DNA from: Halopiger xanaduensis SH-6
GTDB lineage: Archaea; Halobacteriota; Halobacteria; Halobacteriales; Natrialbaceae
Reading direction: 5' to 3'
Assembly (NCBI RefSeq): GCF_000217715.1
Contig: NC_015658.1
Span: 310,001-374,000 of the forward strand
DNA length: 64,000 bases
Shown: one piece after another, positions 13,689 through 20,042 of the stretch
Numbering within the stretch: position 1 is the first letter of the stretch
How the letters are laid out: every line of letters starts with the position of its first letter
Notes under the pieces: generated by a model
What the model saw: the letters and a program-made list of their open reading frames with translations, nothing else
The model's database searches: none
What the model was told of the DNA's origin: nothing
Translations under genes and position numbers: made by a program

Positions 13689-14241
13689 GTAATGACGAGC
13701 GGTGGTAGCTACCAGAACTCGGACGGCTGCCGAGTTCAACGTTTCGACACGCTCGAGCGACTCGCGGACTTCGGGCGGGGACGGTACTCGAAGTTGCCCT
13801 CGGCGTCGTAGCGGGAGCCGCGCTCGAGCGGTCGTGTTACCGCGCGCTCGACATCGCGTCGGTCGCGGTGTACCTCGTCAGTAGACGGCAATAGTTCGAC
13901 CGCCTCATCACGGGTGATCGCTGGAACCTAGCGGTCGTTCTCACTACCCTCTCGTTGCGAGATGGCGTCAGTGAGGACGGAATACGTATCCAGTATCCAC
14001 TCAGAGAGTGGCGGACGCGGGTCATCAGCCGGGCACGTGGATGCTCATCAACCAGAAAACCGTTCTACACACTGCCGTGTAACTGTATTCTCCGATTCGA
14101 CTGGACCGCGACGACGGAGACTCGTCGCGCGATCGCTTCGACGGCGAGAAATCGATGAATCAACGAGTAAGAGACGGTATATTCTGGTGGACCTGTTTGG
14201 GTAGGGCTCGAGACAGATGGTGCCTTATGCATGAATATTAA
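13689..14241. other. Intergenic with a possible decayed gene end
   Basis: On the minus strand about 13740-13850 encodes ERGSRYDAEGNFEYRP, which looks like real protein. It is followed, only after a frame change, by EVRESLERVETLNSAAV, which leads into the upstream extension of the DUF502 frame. This suggests a frameshifted remnant upstream of DUF502. Nothing else is recognisable before the TATA region of the next gene. Confidence 0.25.
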
Positions 14242-14243
14242 CT
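14233..14243 (+). promoter_or_regulatory. TATA-like tract of the gfo6-type gene
   Basis: An AT-rich tract (GAATATTAAC) lies about 27-30 nt before the ATG at 14268, fitting a leaderless transcript and supporting that start over one seven codons upstream. Confidence 0.5.
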
Positions 14244-14267
14244 ATTGTGGGCGGCCAATCCTGGCTC

Positions 14268-15338
14268 ATGGAGTTCGATCTCGACAGTTTCAGTGCTCGC
14301 GACTGGGAACGCCCGACGGACGCCGATCCGATCCGGTTCGCTATGGTCGGGCTCGGGTGGTGGACGCGCGAGCAAGCGATCCCTGCCGTCGAAAACTCGG
14401 ACTATTGCACGACGACAGTCCTGGTCAGTTCCAGCACGGAGAAGGGCGAGGACGTCGCGGCCGACCTGGAGGGGGTCGAAGCGACGCTCACCTACGACGA
14501 GTACGCCGACGGCGCGGCGACCGACGCCTACGACGCGGTGTACGTCTGCACGCCGAACGGACTCCACCGCGAGCACGTCCAAGCGGCGGCCGACCACGAG
14601 AAGGCGGTCCTCTGCGAGAAGCCCCTGGAAGCGACCGTCGAGGACGCCCGGGCGACCGTCGACGCCTGCCGGGACGCGGACGTGCCGCTGATGGTCGCCT
14701 ACCGGCTCCAGACCGAGCCGGTGGCCCGCCGCGCCCGAGAACTGATCCGGGACGGCGCCATCGGCGATGTCGTCTCGGTACTCGGGCACATGTCGGACAC
14801 GATCCTCGACGCCGTCGACGAGACGAGCTGGCGGTTCGACCCCGACCTCGCCGGCGGGACGACGCTCAACGACATCGGGATCTACCCGATGAACACGATC
14901 CGATTCATCCTGGAAGAGGACCCCCAAGCGGTGTACGCCCGGACGGAGTCCGAGCAACCGGCCTACGAGGGAACCGACGAGCACGCGGCGTTCCAGCTCG
15001 AGTTCCCCGACGGCAAGCTCGCCTCGTGTACGGTCACCCACAGCGCGTCACTGGCCTCGAGCCTTCGGTTCGTCGGCACCGAAGGCGAACTGAGCATCGA
15101 GGGGCTGTTCTTCCCGAACACCCGGAAGGTACTCCGGGTGTCCGGACCGGACATCGAGGGCGAGTATCGGCCGGACCCGGTCGACCAGATGCGCGAGGAG
15201 TTCGACTACTTCGCCAACCGCCTCCAGCGCGGTCTCGACCCCGAACCCGACGGCGAACACAGCATGGTCGACATGCGCGCCATCCGCGCCCTCTACGAAT
15301 CTGCCGAGACGGGACAGCGCGTCGAACTCGACCTGTGA
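14268..15338 (+). CDS. gfo6: Gfo/Idh/MocA oxidoreductase, D-xylose 1-dehydrogenase-like
   Basis: This has 356 residues. The N-terminal Rossmann domain has FAMVGLGWWTREQAIPAV (glycine-rich NAD(P) loop) and VYVCTPNGLHREHV; CEKPLEATVEDA carries the conserved EKP lysine. The C-terminal alpha/beta domain contains GGTTLNDIGIYPMNT with the D-x3-Y-type motif that supplies catalytic residues. The overall pattern, including GWWTREQA and EHAAFQLEFP, resembles haloarchaeal NADP-dependent xylose dehydrogenase, which opens the Weimberg-type pentose pathway. No other pentose genes are adjacent, so the substrate could be a different sugar. Confidence 0.75.
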   Translation: MEFDLDSFSARDWERPTDADPIRFAMVGLGWWTREQAIPAVENSDYCTTTVLVSSSTEKGEDVAADLEGVEATLTYDEYADGAATDAYDAVYVCTPNGLHREHVQAAADHEKAVLCEKPLEATVEDARATVDACRDADVPLMVAYRLQTEPVARRARELIRDGAIGDVVSVLGHMSDTILDAVDETSWRFDPDLAGGTTLNDIGIYPMNTIRFILEEDPQAVYARTESEQPAYEGTDEHAAFQLEFPDGKLASCTVTHSASLASSLRFVGTEGELSIEGLFFPNTRKVLRVSGPDIEGEYRPDPVDQMREEFDYFANRLQRGLDPEPDGEHSMVDMRAIRALYESAETGQRVELDL

Positions 15339-15464
15339 ACGAGCTCGGAAACCGGTGCCGGCCAGTTGTTTGAGCGGATTTGCTCGAGGCGGTATGCTGT
15401 CGGAGATTGTCGGCTGAACGTAGGTCTCGAGGTATGTGAATGAGGAGTAGGGTGGATCGTGGAG

Positions 15465-15480
15465 TGTCGCCAAGGCGACA
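15465..15480. repeat. 7-bp inverted repeat at the left edge of the AT-rich island
   Basis: TGTCGCC-AA-GGCGACA is followed by an A-rich run. It could be a transcription end signal for the gfo6-type gene or a recombination/operator site, because base composition drops sharply right after it. No second copy was found at the other edge near 18340. Confidence 0.35.
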
Positions 15481-15567
15481 ACGTCAAAAAATTACAGCGC
15501 CCCGCTCACCTTCGCGCAAAATCTCCAATTGAAACTCACGAAGTGCAGTGGTATTATACGAGAGTTT

Positions 15568-15759
15568 ATGAGTGAAGATAGTGCCAAACTGGATATCATG
15601 CAACACCCCCAAGATGATTTGCTAATCGTCTACGCGCACTCATTACTTGCTCAAGAATACAAAGGCTCAGAGAAAGAAGAATGGGCCCTGTATCTCGCAT
15701 CCAAGATTGCAGATCAGCACGGACTTACCATTTCCGAAGCGATTCGCCAACTCAATTAG
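15568..15759 (+). CDS. Small acidic protein at the head of the island
   Basis: This has 63 residues from MSEDSAKLDIMQ; an upstream Met at 15529 is possible. It is predicted helical, with DLLIVYAHSLLAQEYKG and a C-terminal DQHGLTISEAIRQLN that could form a short HTH-like pair of helices. The size and position before a recombinase fit an excisionase or antitoxin-like regulator, but no family is recognised. Confidence 0.5.
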   Translation: MSEDSAKLDIMQHPQDDLLIVYAHSLLAQEYKGSEKEEWALYLASKIADQHGLTISEAIRQLN

Positions 15760-15852
15760 ATTCGTTCGATTTTGCTACTGCACCAGTACTGCCGTTTGTT
15801 ACTGATATCTTTCTCAACTAAGTTTTTCAATCATAATATCGTACTTGTTTCT

Positions 15853-16560
15853 ATGGCACGGACTGAAAACGCTAAAGAAGATGCCCCTAAGCCTCGAGAG
15901 TACCGTGCACTGAAACGTGCCGCTCAAGAAAAAGTAACATCTGCAAGGCAAGACGATGTTGAGTTTCAACTTGAGTGTGAATTTGTTCTTCGAACAATGG
16001 GCGAGTTAGGCCTTCGAGCAGGTGAAATATCTCATATGAGGGAATCTTGGATTGACTTCGATCGGTGTGAAATCCACGTTCCAGAGCACGATCAATGTAA
16101 TATGGGTGATGATGGTGGACCTTGTGGGTACTGTAAGGCTCAAGCAAAGGATTCTGCCGAAAAACGTGATATCACGTACGAAACAGCCCTTCGGGAAAGG
16201 TGGAAACCAAAAAACGAACATGCAGCACGAACAATTTGGTTCGGTTGGGATGAAGATTTAGTGGAATTAATTGACGAATTCATGTATAAAAATGGAGAGT
16301 ATCTTCATTCTCGAGTCTCTGTGAATCGTCGCATCAAAACTATTGCTTCGGAATGTGAGATGGTCGATAAGGATGAGGTATACCCTCATGCTCTACGGGC
16401 GCACGCAGCAATGTATCATGCAAAGAAGGGAATGCGTGCCTATCACTTATCAGAATTGATGGGTTGGTCAAATATTGATGCAGCGATGGACTATATAAAA
16501 ATGACCGCAGATGATGTTAAGACAGAAATGAAGAGAGTTCACAACGGCGCAAGGTATTGA
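15853..16560 (+). CDS. Tyrosine recombinase/integrase (catalytic-domain type)
   Basis: This has 235 residues from MARTENAKED. Catalytic residues of the lambda-integrase family can be placed: R55 in GLRAGEISHM, a lysine near 120 (KPKNEHAARTI), H179-x-x-R182 in YPHALRAHAAMYH, W205 at the second histidine position (LMGWSNID) and the nucleophile Y214 in AAMDYIKM. An inserted cysteine cluster (H79, C82, C91, C94) resembles a zinc knuckle, as in other haloarchaeal integrases. The arm-binding N-terminal domain is short or absent. It would catalyse insertion and excision of the island. Codon use is AT-rich like the next two genes. Confidence 0.85.
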   Translation: MARTENAKEDAPKPREYRALKRAAQEKVTSARQDDVEFQLECEFVLRTMGELGLRAGEISHMRESWIDFDRCEIHVPEHDQCNMGDDGGPCGYCKAQAKDSAEKRDITYETALRERWKPKNEHAARTIWFGWDEDLVELIDEFMYKNGEYLHSRVSVNRRIKTIASECEMVDKDEVYPHALRAHAAMYHAKKGMRAYHLSELMGWSNIDAAMDYIKMTADDVKTEMKRVHNGARY

Positions 16561-16682
16561 TTTAGTTTAGATCTACTTTGTCATCTCCTCCATCCGGATC
16601 AAGAAGGGTGTTACCTCACGATTTCACTTTCACTGTGGTTTGATTGATATTATATGTTTATGCTTCATGCTATCCACTATAC

Positions 16683-17384
16683 ATGACTAAGTATGAGTTT
16701 GTGAAAGGGCGATGGAAGAACTTAAGCGGATTTGACGGTGCACCTGTTCTACATCCAAGAAATCAGTGTAAATACTGTGGAGAGCCAATACAGGGTCAAT
16801 ATCGGAAGTGCTACTTTTGCAAAGAGGGAAGGAATGCAGTACGAACACACATTGAAAGAGTATATACTGTCTCTGTCTACTTTAAGCAAAGGACAGAGGG
16901 TCACGAATTTTCTAAAGAACTGCTTGAAGCAAAAGAGGGAGACCATAAAGAAAAAATGGCTAAAGTCCTGAAATGGGGTATTGATAACCTAGGTCTCCTA
17001 TCAAGTACTGAACTCCTTGTCGTACCTCCGTCGGGTAGTGGTGCGGATTATAATCATATGGTCGAGATCGGCAAAGTCGTCAGTGATTTGACTGGGAAGC
17101 CGCTTTGCACATCTACGTATAAAGAAAAGGATTACCAAGCTCAAAAAGAACTGCCCAGTGAAGAGCGGATAGAAAATGTACGTGACGGCGTGGGTTGCGA
17201 TAAAGATTTGAGCGAATATTCCTCTGCCGCAATTATTGACGATATAGTTACAACTTGTGCTACAATGTCAGATACAGCCCGTGCAGTGAAGGAATCTGGT
17301 GTTGACAGAGCATTCGGACTAGGTATTGCTCGATCAGTCAGCTGTGATGGATTAGTTCATGCCCATGCAATGAGGGAGGTGTAA
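16683..17384 (+). CDS. ComF-like zinc-ribbon phosphoribosyltransferase
   Basis: This has 233 residues. The N-terminal zinc ribbon (C29, C32, C43, C46: CKYCGEP ... CYFC) is followed by a type I phosphoribosyltransferase domain with the PRPP loop AAIIDDIVTTCATMSDTA (D186-D187), in which the usual TTG-A-T glycine is cysteine. LLVVPPSGSGADYNHM is a plausible second active-site strand. ComF proteins act in bacterial DNA uptake, and isolated PRTases also appear in nucleotide-based conflict systems. The stop is 2 nt before the DprA-like ATG, with a strong GGAGGT ribosome site between them, so the two are translated together. Confidence 0.8.
   Translation: MTKYEFVKGRWKNLSGFDGAPVLHPRNQCKYCGEPIQGQYRKCYFCKEGRNAVRTHIERVYTVSVYFKQRTEGHEFSKELLEAKEGDHKEKMAKVLKWGIDNLGLLSSTELLVVPPSGSGADYNHMVEIGKVVSDLTGKPLCTSTYKEKDYQAQKELPSEERIENVRDGVGCDKDLSEYSSAAIIDDIVTTCATMSDTARAVKESGVDRAFGLGIARSVSCDGLVHAHAMREV
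17375..17380 (+). promoter_or_regulatory. Strong Shine-Dalgarno site for the DprA-like gene
   Basis: GGAGGT sits about 6 nt before the ATG at 17387, inside the last codons of the PRTase gene. It fixes the start and shows translational coupling, in contrast to the leaderless style of most genes nearby. Confidence 0.6.
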
Positions 17385-17386
17385 AG

Positions 17387-18331
17387 ATGAACACACATAT
17401 GGTAATAGCGGCTTTGAATGATGAATACAAATTGAATAGCCAGCGAATGGTAGACCTTCTTAGAGACGCAAATGAGAAGAAGCCATTAGAGGAAGTGGAT
17501 ATAAATATATTTAAAGATCTCATTAGGGCAAAATCGCTGTCTGACGATGACATTGCGCCTTTAGCTAAAAAGGCCCTCTCTGTGCTGAATAACTCTGATT
17601 GGGATTTTTATGAGGATTATATTAGAGATGTTGAAGAAAAAGGTATGAAGGTGATATCCATTTTAGATAAGGAATATCCTTCACAACTTCTCAGAATACA
17701 AAAACCACCTCTACAGTTGTATATCAATGGTGATCCTCAGTCTTGGAACGACGCCATCGCGGTTGTTGGGACTAGGGAAGCGCATGATCACAGGATCAAG
17801 TTCGTAGAGGAGATCGGCGAACAGTTGGTTAATGGAGGACACACAGTCGTAAGCGGTCTTGCTAATGGAGTAGACGAATCAGCTCACCGTTCAGCAATTG
17901 AGTCAAATGGAGATACCATTGCTGTCCTTCCGAGCCATATTGAAAATATATACCCCAAAAGTAATGTGCCGCTCGGAGAGGAAATACCGTCAAATGGGGC
18001 CTTGATTAGTGAGGTAACATCAAAAATAGGCATTCATCGTGGCCGCTTCGTTGAGAGAAATAGAATTACATCTGGGCTTTGCAAAGCTGTAATTATCGGA
18101 GCATCTGGTGATAGCGGTGGTACTGTCCATCAGGCTAAGTTCGCAGATAGCCAGAATATTCCTATATTCCTATATGACCCGAAGAATGGGGATGGGCAGT
18201 CTCCCGATAAACTTGATAAATATGGAGTGCACCGTTTCGAAAGTCTCGAAGAATTGGAAGACTTGGTCCAATCCCTTGAGAACGAATCTAGGTCCGGCCA
18301 TAATTATACTTTAAACGAATACTCCAACTAA
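17387..18331 (+). CDS. DprA/Smf-like SLOG-fold protein
   Basis: This has 314 residues. The Rossmann-like DprA core is complete: AIAVVGTRE (126-131), HTVVSGLANGVDESAHRSA (152-170), TIAVLPSHIENIYP (177-190), LISEV (206-210), GRFVERNRITSGLCKAV (219-235) and SGDSGGTVHQAKFA (240-253). The usual SGxAxGID arginine/isoleucine pair is NGV. An N-terminal helical region (1-80) and an acidic C-terminal tail flank it. Bacterial DprA binds ssDNA and loads RecA; stand-alone relatives bind nucleotides or nucleic acid in defence-like settings. Pairing with a ComF-like PRTase on an integrase island is unusual in archaea. Confidence 0.88.
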   Translation: MNTHMVIAALNDEYKLNSQRMVDLLRDANEKKPLEEVDINIFKDLIRAKSLSDDDIAPLAKKALSVLNNSDWDFYEDYIRDVEEKGMKVISILDKEYPSQLLRIQKPPLQLYINGDPQSWNDAIAVVGTREAHDHRIKFVEEIGEQLVNGGHTVVSGLANGVDESAHRSAIESNGDTIAVLPSHIENIYPKSNVPLGEEIPSNGALISEVTSKIGIHRGRFVERNRITSGLCKAVIIGASGDSGGTVHQAKFADSQNIPIFLYDPKNGDGQSPDKLDKYGVHRFESLEELEDLVQSLENESRSGHNYTLNEYSN

Positions 18332-18677
18332 CTAGTTGAGGTCTCCTCACTCATCTCCCTCTGCCTTCCCCTCTACGGTCGTCCGTCAAGAGAACTGGTT
18401 TCCCAGATATGCACACGAACACCGACTTATCGTGTTCACGATCGAAATACGCTGTATGAGCGTTTACAGCAATAACTTGGGGCATTTTCCAGAGCTCTTT
18501 GGCTGAAGATATAGACGCCAACCGACGACCTGGGTTCACGAGCGGGTGATGACAGCTTCATCCCGGAACCCAAACGAAACTGGAACGGATCTCATCGTCA
18601 CCGAGTACGATACGTGTTCGAGCGCCCACTCTCAAGTACGAGAAGGTAGTCGGCAAAGGTAGTTGACCGACTCGACA
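18332..18677. other. Intergenic right flank of the island
   Basis: About 345 nt. GC content returns to the host level after about 18345. No gene, tRNA or repeat matching the left border was recognised. Confidence 0.35.
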
Positions 18678-20042
18678 ATGGAACGGCGCACTATCCTTCG
18701 AGTCCTGCTGCTAGCCGTCGTAGTCGGATCTGCCGGATATCTCGCGATCGCGTGGGTCAACGCACCGACTAACGCGACCGCTGCCGCGGCGAATCAGACG
18801 CAGTTACCGCTCGAGGATCGGACGCCGGTCGTCGAGAACCGCGACGGGGCGACCGTCATTACGACCGATCCGCCGGCGGGAAATGACGGCCTCGGGGCTA
18901 TCGTCGCGTTCGGTACCGACGGACGGCCGCTCTACCACAACGATACGTACGGCAGTTACTTCGACGTCGACCCCGATCCGCCCGGCTCGAAGACCGTTCT
19001 GTACGTCGCGGGGAGCCGGTACGACCCGTGCCCCGACAGGCTCCAAGCAGAGACGGACAGCGCCGGTGACGACGGCTGTGCTGAAATCGCGGTCGAGCGC
19101 GTCAACCTCACGACCGGCTCGACCGAGCGAATACACACCGCCGTTACCGGCTGGGACATCTGGCACGACGTCGACCGGATCGACGAGCACCGACTGCTCG
19201 TGGCCGACATCGCTCGAGACCGCGTATTCGCGCTGAACACTACCACCGACGAGGTGACGTGGGAGTGGCGCGCCGAGGACGGTCTCGATCCGGACAGCGG
19301 CGGGCAGCCCGGGGACTGGACCCACGTCAACGACGTCGAACTGCTCGAGGACGGTCGCGTGATGGTCAGTCTCCGCAATCAGGACCGGGTCGCCTTTCTC
19401 GAGCCGGGCGAGGGACTCGAGCGCGACTGGACGCTCGGCGCCGAGGACGCGTACGGGATCCTCTACGAGCAGCACAATCCGGACTACATCCCGCCCGCCC
19501 GCGGCGGTCCGGCGGTGATCGTCTCCGATTCGGAAAACAACCGCGTCGTCGAGTATCAGCGCGAGAACGACACGTGGACGCGAACCTGGGAGTGGCGAGA
19601 CCAGCGGCTCCAGTGGCCGCGCGACGCCGACCGACTCCCCGGCGGCCACACGCTCGTGACGGACTCCAAGGGTGATCGGGTGCTCGAGCTCTCGGAGACC
19701 GACGACGTCGTCTGGAGCGTGGATATCGCGACGCCCTACGAAGCGGAGCGTCTCGGGACCGGCGACGAGAGCGCGACCGGGAGGAGTACGACCGCACTCG
19801 CGAACGGTTCCATCGACACGAGGGCCGCCGAAACGGATCGAACCTCGAAGACCGGTCTGTCCTGGCTCGTCGCCTTCATCACCGGCCCGGCAGTCAACGG
19901 CGTGCTGCACGCGGCCCCGACGTGGATGACGATCGAGGATTTGCTGGTCGCCGGCGTATTCGGTATCACAGCCGTGACGGCCGGCGCATTAGAGGTATAC
20001 TGGTCGAGAGTCGGCCGACGACTGTTAGAACGGCTGAGATGA
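18678..20042 (+). CDS. Arylsulfotransferase-like (ASST) membrane-anchored beta-propeller
   Basis: This has 454 residues. An N-terminal membrane helix (ILRVLLLAVVVGSAGYLAIA) leads to an external beta-propeller with ASST-family repeats (GWDIWHDVDRIDEHRLLVAD, WTHVNDVELLEDGRVMVSLR, EQHNPDYIP, WPRDADRLPGGHTLVTDS). A second hydrophobic helix near the C-terminus (LVAGVFGITAVTAGALE) anchors the end. The nearest relative in the window is the gene at 33064-34467, with the same order of motifs. True arylsulfate sulfotransferases use a catalytic histidine in the propeller; whether these haloarchaeal proteins are enzymes is unknown. The ATG at 18678 is preferred to a TTG at 18663. Confidence 0.8.
   Translation: MERRTILRVLLLAVVVGSAGYLAIAWVNAPTNATAAAANQTQLPLEDRTPVVENRDGATVITTDPPAGNDGLGAIVAFGTDGRPLYHNDTYGSYFDVDPDPPGSKTVLYVAGSRYDPCPDRLQAETDSAGDDGCAEIAVERVNLTTGSTERIHTAVTGWDIWHDVDRIDEHRLLVADIARDRVFALNTTTDEVTWEWRAEDGLDPDSGGQPGDWTHVNDVELLEDGRVMVSLRNQDRVAFLEPGEGLERDWTLGAEDAYGILYEQHNPDYIPPARGGPAVIVSDSENNRVVEYQRENDTWTRTWEWRDQRLQWPRDADRLPGGHTLVTDSKGDRVLELSETDDVVWSVDIATPYEAERLGTGDESATGRSTTALANGSIDTRAAETDRTSKTGLSWLVAFITGPAVNGVLHAAPTWMTIEDLLVAGVFGITAVTAGALEVYWSRVGRRLLERLR

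What the first reader, a model, noticed from the sequence alone, without database searches (positions are those of the whole stretch)
15485..18340. Integrase island pairing a ComF-like PRTase with a DprA-like SLOG protein in a haloarchaeon
Seen: an AT-rich block with a tyrosine recombinase, a zinc-ribbon phosphoribosyltransferase and a DprA/Smf homologue, the last two only 2 nt apart with a strong GGAGGT site. Known: ComF and DprA act in bacterial DNA uptake, while SLOG proteins and PRTases also occur in nucleotide-based conflict systems. Haloarchaea lack a classical competence apparatus, and no uptake genes are nearby. Inference: a self-contained two-gene module carried by a mobile island, either a defence system that senses foreign ssDNA or a nucleotide, or an aid to DNA handling on entry. 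The PRTase loop has Cys for the usual Gly, and the DprA core has NGV for the usual arginine/isoleucine part, so ligands may differ.
Basis: partly seen in the sequence, partly recalled or inferred. Interest (0 to 1): 0.78.

Follow-up and report, generated by a model that had tools for sequence, protein, structure and literature searches.

The report
Haloarchaeal ShosTA-like toxin–antitoxin defence pair
A salt-loving archaeon carries, on a foreign AT-rich island, a two-gene pair (a ComF-like phosphoribosyltransferase and a DprA-like DNA-binding protein) that is an archaeal variant of a known bacterial anti-virus toxin–antitoxin system called ShosTA, and in the haloarchaea sampled every DprA gene occurs only in such pairs.

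Summary
Window 15464-18331 is a low-GC island (GC3 0.36-0.39 against 0.82-0.88 in flanking genes) with a small ORF, a tyrosine recombinase, a zinc-ribbon ComF-type PRTase and a DprA-like SLOG protein 2 nt downstream behind a GGAGGT site. The pair is not a new kind: it is the haloarchaeal version of the PRTase+DprA toxin-antitoxin family (ShosTA/PsyrTA). Support: PADLOC hits, fold matches to ComF, ShosT (8zvd) and ShosA (8zva), and the same two-gene arrangement on bacterial plasmids and phages. In 392 Halobacteriales genomes all 18 true DprA homologues (15 genomes) have a PRTase-domain gene directly upstream; with three more loci, 21 of 21. Four toxin architectures occur. The toxin here lacks the HAD domain of characterised ShosT and carries a ComF-like zinc ribbon, so I call it a variant, not a strict ShosTA. 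Most likely it is an abortive-infection toxin-antitoxin: the PRTase disturbs nucleotide pools, and the DprA-like protein binds DNA and counteracts it. The island's left edge is an 80-bp element that marks variable, partly defence-gene cargo in many Natrialbaceae.

The parts
15464..15545 (+). ~80-bp conserved element at the left edge of the island (14-bp dyad GTCGCCAAGGCGAC, AAAAAATTACAG, CTCCAATTGAAACTCACGAA)
   Evidence: Repeated 1-4 times per genome in 41 of 125 same-family genomes, none in the reversed-pattern control; GC falls by >=0.08 across it in 29 of 35 copies
15529..15759 (+). small ORF1 (76 aa), viral family phrog_25699, function unknown; its start overlaps the element
   Evidence: E=5.8e-27
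15853..16560 (+). tyrosine recombinase (235 aa), phrog_216 integrase family; closest viral relative phiCh1 Int1
16650..16655 (+). TATA-like box ~30 nt before the PRTase ATG; suggests a leaderless transcript (inference)
   Evidence: sequence
16683..17384 (+). ShosT-like toxin candidate: 4-Cys zinc ribbon + ComF-type PRTase, no HAD domain (233 aa)
   Evidence: PADLOC ShosT E=5e-5; TIGR00201 comF E=1.5e-7; fold match to ComF 7p0h and ShosT 8zvd
17375..17380 (+). Shine-Dalgarno GGAGGT of the second gene, 6 nt before its ATG
17387..18331 (+). ShosA-like antitoxin candidate: N-terminal helical domain + DprA-type SLOG Rossmann core, no C-terminal winged helix (314 aa)
   Evidence: PF02481 E=1.3e-53; fold match to SpDprA 3uqz and E. 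coli ShosA 8zva

Best explanation
The pair is a ShosTA-type toxin-antitoxin / abortive-infection module that reached this haloarchaeon on a mobile island. Shown here: the two proteins are a ComF-family PRTase with a PRPP loop and zinc ribbon, and a DprA-type SLOG protein; they are arranged as a two-gene operon; all haloarchaeal DprA homologues found are coupled to a PRTase. Inferred from bacterial ShosTA: the PRTase is the toxin and acts on PRPP/nucleotide substrates, so that unrestrained activity unbalances nucleotide pools, damages DNA and stops growth or kills the infected cell. The DprA-like partner binds DNA (probably ssDNA or replication/recombination intermediates) and neutralises the toxin or its effect. 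Virus replication or a virus protein upsets the balance and releases the toxin. The 2-nt spacing and strong SD would keep antitoxin supply high relative to a leaderless toxin cistron.
For: Homology: PADLOC ShosT E=5e-5 and ShosA E=1.3e-60; profile match of the PRTase clade to bacterial ShosT partners, 98% probability, E=2.4e-13, and to the other haloarchaeal PRTases, 99.2%, E=8e-20. Structure: the PRTase model (pLDDT 80.7) matches ComF 7p0h first and also 8zvd 'ShosT with phosphate' (TMq 0.47, the highest of the 50 rows shown); the DprA-like model (pLDDT 90.9) matches 3uqz and 8zva ShosA. Linkage: 18 of 18 true DprA loci in 392 Halobacteriales, 21 of 21 with three more, have a PRTase-domain gene directly upstream. 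Phylum-wide, 12 of 15 PRTase hits have the DprA-like gene next door. The same pair lies on bacterial plasmids and phages. Published: a DprA+PRTase pair from a P2-like phage protects against T7 and lambda (PMC9122126); ShosT disturbs purine pools, ShosA binds DNA and counteracts it (Pu et al. 2025 as summarised in PMC12593503). Neighbours of relatives include R-M-like genes and recombinases.
Against: Sequence similarity to ShosT is weak (21 bits), and PADLOC's ShosA model also scores E. coli Smf (195 bits) and a canonical DprA (198 bits), so the ShosA hit is not specific. Characterised ShosT carries an N-terminal HAD domain (P2-like ShosT); this protein lacks it, and the reported pyrophosphatase activity may be missing. 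I found no toxicity, neutralisation or virus data for any archaeal pair. Direct binding of T and A was not tested.
Confidence: 0.72

Rival explanations
1. A DNA-handling aid on entry: the ComF-like and DprA-like proteins receive and protect incoming ssDNA and pass it to the recombinase (RadA), helping the island or a plasmid establish, as ComFC and DprA do in natural transformation.
For: H. pylori ComFC binds ssDNA and PRPP, and ComFC of other species interacts with DprA (PMC9005727); the PRTase is ComF-like by sequence and fold; the neighbour is a site-specific recombinase.
Against: No other DNA-uptake gene was seen among the ORFs around the island (no whole-genome search was made). The DprA-like protein lacks the winged-helix domain found in the two canonical DprAs tested and misses the curated TIGR00732 dprA cut-off (161 of 191 bits). 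Relatives carry toxins of four different architectures, as expected of conflict modules rather than uptake machinery.
Confidence: 0.13
2. A plasmid/island addiction module only: the toxin-antitoxin pair stabilises the island or the 437-kb replicon, and any virus defence is incidental.
For: The contig is 436,718 bp beside a 3.67-Mb contig, so the pair may sit on a secondary replicon; toxin-antitoxin pairs commonly stabilise replicons (general knowledge).
Against: Bacterial homologues protect against phage. Pairs lie beside R-M-like genes in G390 and G040, and the left-edge element marks cargo that includes defence domains elsewhere.
Confidence: 0.1
3. A small-molecule enzyme pair (nucleotide salvage or a nucleotide signal): the PRTase makes a phosphoribosyl product that the SLOG protein binds or hydrolyses.
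For: PRTase catalytic loop and SLOG Rossmann fold are present; LOG-type SLOG enzymes are among the weaker fold matches.
Against: The SLOG core is DprA-type (PF02481 E=1.3e-53 against PF18306 E=2e-8), with no LOG PGGxGT-E catalytic motif visible in the sequence; all close matches among solved structures are DprA or ShosA.
Confidence: 0.05

Closest known systems
ShosTA toxin-antitoxin / anti-phage system (E. coli and its P2-like phages; 8zvd ShosT, 8zva/9vzo ShosA)
   Same: PRTase toxin adjacent to a DprA-like antitoxin; same folds; carried on mobile elements
   Different: Here the PRTase has a ComF-like 4-Cys ribbon and no HAD domain; gene order is T then A, where the P2-like phage has A then T; A proteins 22% identical to the P2-like ShosA
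PsyrTA / RqlHI (RecQ-helicase-PRTase + DprA)
   Same: C-terminal PRTase coupled to a DprA-like partner; true relatives occur in haloarchaea (G335, G136: PsyrT 874 bits for G335)
   Different: No helicase domain in the window's toxin
ComFC-DprA of natural transformation
   Same: N-terminal 4-Cys zinc finger + PRTase with DDI.TT loop, partnered functionally with DprA (PMC9005727); best PDB fold match is H. pylori ComF
   Different: No uptake genes seen nearby; DprA-like protein lacks the winged helix of the canonical DprAs tested; rare accessory distribution

Membership tests
ShosTA | PRTase gene directly adjacent to a DprA-like gene | tested here: met
   2-nt gap; conserved in 21 of 21 haloarchaeal DprA loci
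ShosTA | toxin shares the ShosT PRTase fold with a PRPP loop | tested here: met
   8zvd E=3.2e-3, TMq 0.47; DDIVTTCAT loop; profile E=2.4e-13 to bacterial partners. Modest strength
ShosTA | N-terminal HAD domain on the toxin, as in characterised ShosT (reported PRTase and pyrophosphatase activities) | tested here: not met
   HAD found in P2-like and Pf-phage ShosT but not in the window protein; some bacterial pairs (Hymenobacter, Agarilytica) lack it too
ShosTA | ShosA-type antitoxin fold (N-terminal helices + SLOG core) | tested here: met
   8zva E=1.4e-18; but the PADLOC ShosA model does not separate it from DprA
ShosTA | toxicity of T, rescue by A, protection against virus | not testable with these tools
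   needs experiments
PsyrTA | RecQ-like helicase fused to the PRTase | tested here: not met
   233-aa toxin; no helicase domain
canonical DprA (competence) | NCBI dprA equivalog score and DprA_WH winged helix | tested here: not met
   161.1 of 191.15 bits; no PF17782, present in E. coli Smf and Vescimonas DprA
ComF/ComFC | N-terminal 4-Cys zinc finger + PRTase domain | tested here: met
   C29, C32, C43, C46 invariant in 5 relatives; best fold match 7p0h
ComF/ComFC | score above the curated comF cut-off; function in DNA uptake | tested here: not met
   31.6 of 233.55 bits; function not testable

The most novel reading that the evidence does not exclude
In haloarchaea the ComF-DprA partnership exists only as a virus-defence toxin-antitoxin, in at least four toxin architectures. 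These include a HAD-less zinc-ribbon form (this window) and ~800-1500-aa forms with metallophosphoesterase, HhH and pentapeptide domains. It works by a route distinct from bacterial ShosTA (no pyrophosphatase), perhaps with the zinc-ribbon PRTase itself reading DNA. The bacterial competence pair ComF/DprA and this defence pair would then be two uses of one ancient ssDNA-handling couple.
Probability: 0.3. Interest if true: 0.75.

Novelty: new variant of a known kind. Interest (0 to 1): 0.5.

Why it matters
It moves a recently explained bacterial anti-phage toxin-antitoxin family into haloarchaea in a HAD-less, ComF-like form that can be tested in a tractable host. It also explains why DprA homologues turn up sporadically in haloarchaea: all those found are halves of such pairs, so annotating them as competence genes is misleading. 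The shared parts list with ComFC-DprA makes the evolutionary link between competence and defence directly testable.

Tried and rejected
Exact back-translated scans with the DprA-like protein in genome contigs and viral contigs found nothing. att direct repeats flanking the island: none beyond chance. tRNA target: none in the window. Empty site: the sister genome shares both flanks (~91-93%) but holds 3.5 kb of unrelated ordinary genes where the window has 4.9 kb, so an exact junction could not be defined. 'Different ligand' from Cys and NGV: rejected on alignment. The PADLOC ShosA score as proof: rejected after canonical DprAs scored as high. A tree with a mis-framed row and long branches was rebuilt; haloarchaeal A proteins then lie on one side of a branch with 88/82 support, suggestive only. 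Pu et al. 2025 itself is not in the library; its content is taken from a review.
Full report
What is there. GC drops from ~0.63 to 0.40-0.45 between about 15,460 and 18,500, and GC3 of its genes is 0.36-0.39 against 0.82-0.88 in the flanking genes. In order on the + strand: a 76-aa ORF (phrog_25699, E=5.8e-27), a tyrosine recombinase (PF00589; phrog_216), a 233-aa PRTase and a 314-aa DprA-like protein. The last two are 2 nt apart with GGAGGT 6 nt before the second ATG. The first of the pair has a TATA-like box ~30 nt before its ATG, which fits a leaderless haloarchaeal transcript (inference). The window lies on a 436,718-bp contig of an assembly whose largest contig seen is 3.67 Mb, so a secondary replicon is likely but not proven.

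Identity of the PRTase. Pfam gives nothing, but TIGR00201 comF (E=1.5e-7) and PADLOC ShosT (E=5e-5) match. Across five close relatives the four ribbon cysteines, the DDI-T-T PRPP loop, and a K..Y..Q..R..N series resembling the ComF family pattern are conserved (the pattern comparison is from memory). An AlphaFold2 model (pLDDT 80.7) matches H. pylori ComF 7p0h best (E=4.4e-5) and also 8zvd 'ShosT with phosphate' with the highest query TM-score among the rows shown, 0.47. Published work describes ComFC as a 4-Cys zinc finger plus PRPP-binding PRTase with the loop DDIITTGTTL, binding ssDNA, with ComFC of two other species interacting with DprA (PMC9005727). The window protein has the same two-part layout. 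The characterised P2-like ShosT has an N-terminal HAD domain that the window protein lacks.

Identity of the partner. PF02481 E=1.3e-53. The model (pLDDT 90.9) matches S. pneumoniae DprA 3uqz and E. coli ShosA 8zva (E=1.4e-18). It lacks the DprA_WH domain present in E. coli Smf and Vescimonas DprA and falls short of the curated dprA cut-off. A caution found by control: PADLOC's ShosA model scores canonical DprAs almost as high (195-198 against 203 bits), so the model hit alone does not separate antitoxin from competence protein. Context does.

Context across genomes. A PF02481 search of 392 Halobacteriales genomes gave 18 true DprA-type loci (E<1e-20) in 15 genomes; the remaining hits are short, weak SLOG matches of at most ~30 bits. 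All 18, and three further loci (G008, G016, G109), have a PRTase-domain gene directly upstream (the last case, G108:C10, was read by hand). Two of them (G380) start at contig ends, so only the C-terminal PRTase part is seen. Four toxin architectures occur: (i) the window's short zinc-ribbon PRTase (window, G252, G040, G390, G008); (ii) ~310-330 aa with an N-terminal cysteine-rich start, a linker and PRTase; (iii) ~800-1500-aa proteins ending in a PRTase, variously with metallophosphoesterase, helix-hairpin-helix and pentapeptide domains; (iv) RecQ-PRTase, a clear PsyrT (874 bits). Searching 393 genomes of the whole phylum with the class-i PRTase profile gave 15 genomes; in 12 the DprA-like gene is adjacent. 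The other three were not resolved (one lies at a contig end). On bacterial plasmids and phages the same couple appears in Segatella, Agarilytica, Secundilactobacillus, Streptomyces, Hymenobacter, Thermus phage phiOH2, P2-like P24C9, Burkholderia phage Mana and Pseudomonas phage PfAC02a, the last annotated ShosT/ShosA beside Kiwa genes. A rebuilt tree puts the 20 haloarchaeal A proteins on one side of a branch (88/82, not decisive) and the five class-i proteins together (100/100).

Mechanism. A DprA-PRTase pair from a P2-like phage hotspot protects E. coli against T7 and lambda, and DprA homologues act as antitoxins in shosTA, syrTA and rqlHI (PMC9122126). A review (PMC12593503) summarises Pu et al. 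2025: ShosT is a PRTase and pyrophosphatase that disturbs purine pools and causes DNA duplications, filamentation and death; ShosA binds DNA and counteracts this; T7 Gp0.7 triggers it. Another paper lists ShosTA among systems activated by phage ssDNA-binding protein (PMC10732053). I therefore take the window pair to be a toxin-antitoxin used for abortive infection, with the PRTase as toxin. Shown here: identities, operon layout, constant pairing, mobile setting. Inferred: toxicity, trigger, DNA binding. The missing HAD domain means that half of the reported ShosT chemistry may be absent, so I do not file it as a strict ShosTA member. ShosTA has been reported in archaea before: a survey lists it among systems more frequent in Asgard archaea (PMC11291487). 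I found no paper on it in haloarchaea in the library searched.

The Cys in the PRPP loop is shared by three of five relatives and Gly by the other two; the NGV motif is NGV/NGI in all five and the site is variable across ShosA proteins. Neither signals a special ligand. The recombinase is most similar among viruses to phiCh1 Int1 (33.5% over its whole length), which lies in an invertible tail-fibre segment. G252 has a different tyrosine recombinase directly upstream of its pair and G008 a divergent serine recombinase-like gene, so association with recombinases is real, but no particular integration reaction is shown.

The island edge. The left boundary (15464-15545) is an ~80-bp element found 1-4 times per genome in 41 of 125 family genomes. 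It has a 14-bp dyad that also occurs in a compensated form (GTCCCCAAGGGGAC). GC falls by at least 0.08 across it in 29 of 35 copies (my notebook figure of 34/35 was wrong). In about half the copies the upstream neighbour is a homologue of betapleolipovirus ORF9 (HRPV-3), and conserved viral-family genes often follow on the far side. Between them lies AT-rich cargo that differs at nearly every copy. Cargo domains include a PD-T4-6-like kinase, a GmrSD/DUF262 nuclease, Mrr, AbiJ_NTD5, Schlafen AlbA_2, a LmuB/DndD-like ATPase, a DNA methylase and a type IIG R-M-like protein; many other cargo genes have no match, and no matched control was run. This looks like a proviral cargo hotspot comparable to the P2/P4 hotspots. 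It supports, by association only, a defence role for the window pair. In the window the flanking viral genes are absent, so the island may be a relic.

Noticed in passing
window 15464-15545; also L086-L090 and L092-L121: An ~80-bp conserved element with a dyad (GTCGCCAAGGCGAC, also compensated GTCCCCAAGGGGAC) marks the start of variable AT-rich cargo in 41 of 125 Natrialbaceae-family genomes, often next to a betapleolipovirus ORF9 homologue; cargo includes several defence-type domains. Candidate haloarchaeal proviral defence hotspot; no matched control was run.
   Followed up: partly
L046:4554-8183, L047:4837-8466, L054:3402-7832, L055:5569-7992, L058:5769-9392, L053:5573-8281: Giant (800-1500 aa) haloarchaeal proteins ending in a ShosT-like PRTase, variously with metallophosphoesterase, helix-hairpin-helix and pentapeptide regions, each directly upstream of a DprA-like gene; possibly an undescribed ShosTA architecture.
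   Followed up: partly
L057:4423-8283, L062:4893-8753, L061:1072-4920: Clear PsyrTA (RecQ-PRTase + DprA-like) in haloarchaea, with two copies about 36 kb apart in one genome (G335).
   Followed up: partly
L085:4629-8149 versus window 13763-18678: The sister genome shares both flanks but has a peroxiredoxin-like gene, a thioredoxin-reductase-like oxidoreductase and an HxlR-type regulator where the window has a sugar oxidoreductase-like gene and the island; a flexible locus.
   Followed up: partly
window 15853-16560: The recombinase's closest viral relative is Int1 of phage phiCh1, a recombinase within an invertible tail-fibre segment, rather than a prophage integrase.
   Followed up: no
L127:2228-5636: A Sinorhizobium plasmid carries two DprA genes with PRTase or unnamed partners in convergent orientation, seemingly two such pairs side by side.
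   Followed up: no
L169:9133-14365: On Natrialba magadii pNMAG01 the 80-bp element is followed within 7 kb by a phosphoribosyltransferase-family gene without an annotated DprA beside it.
   Followed up: no
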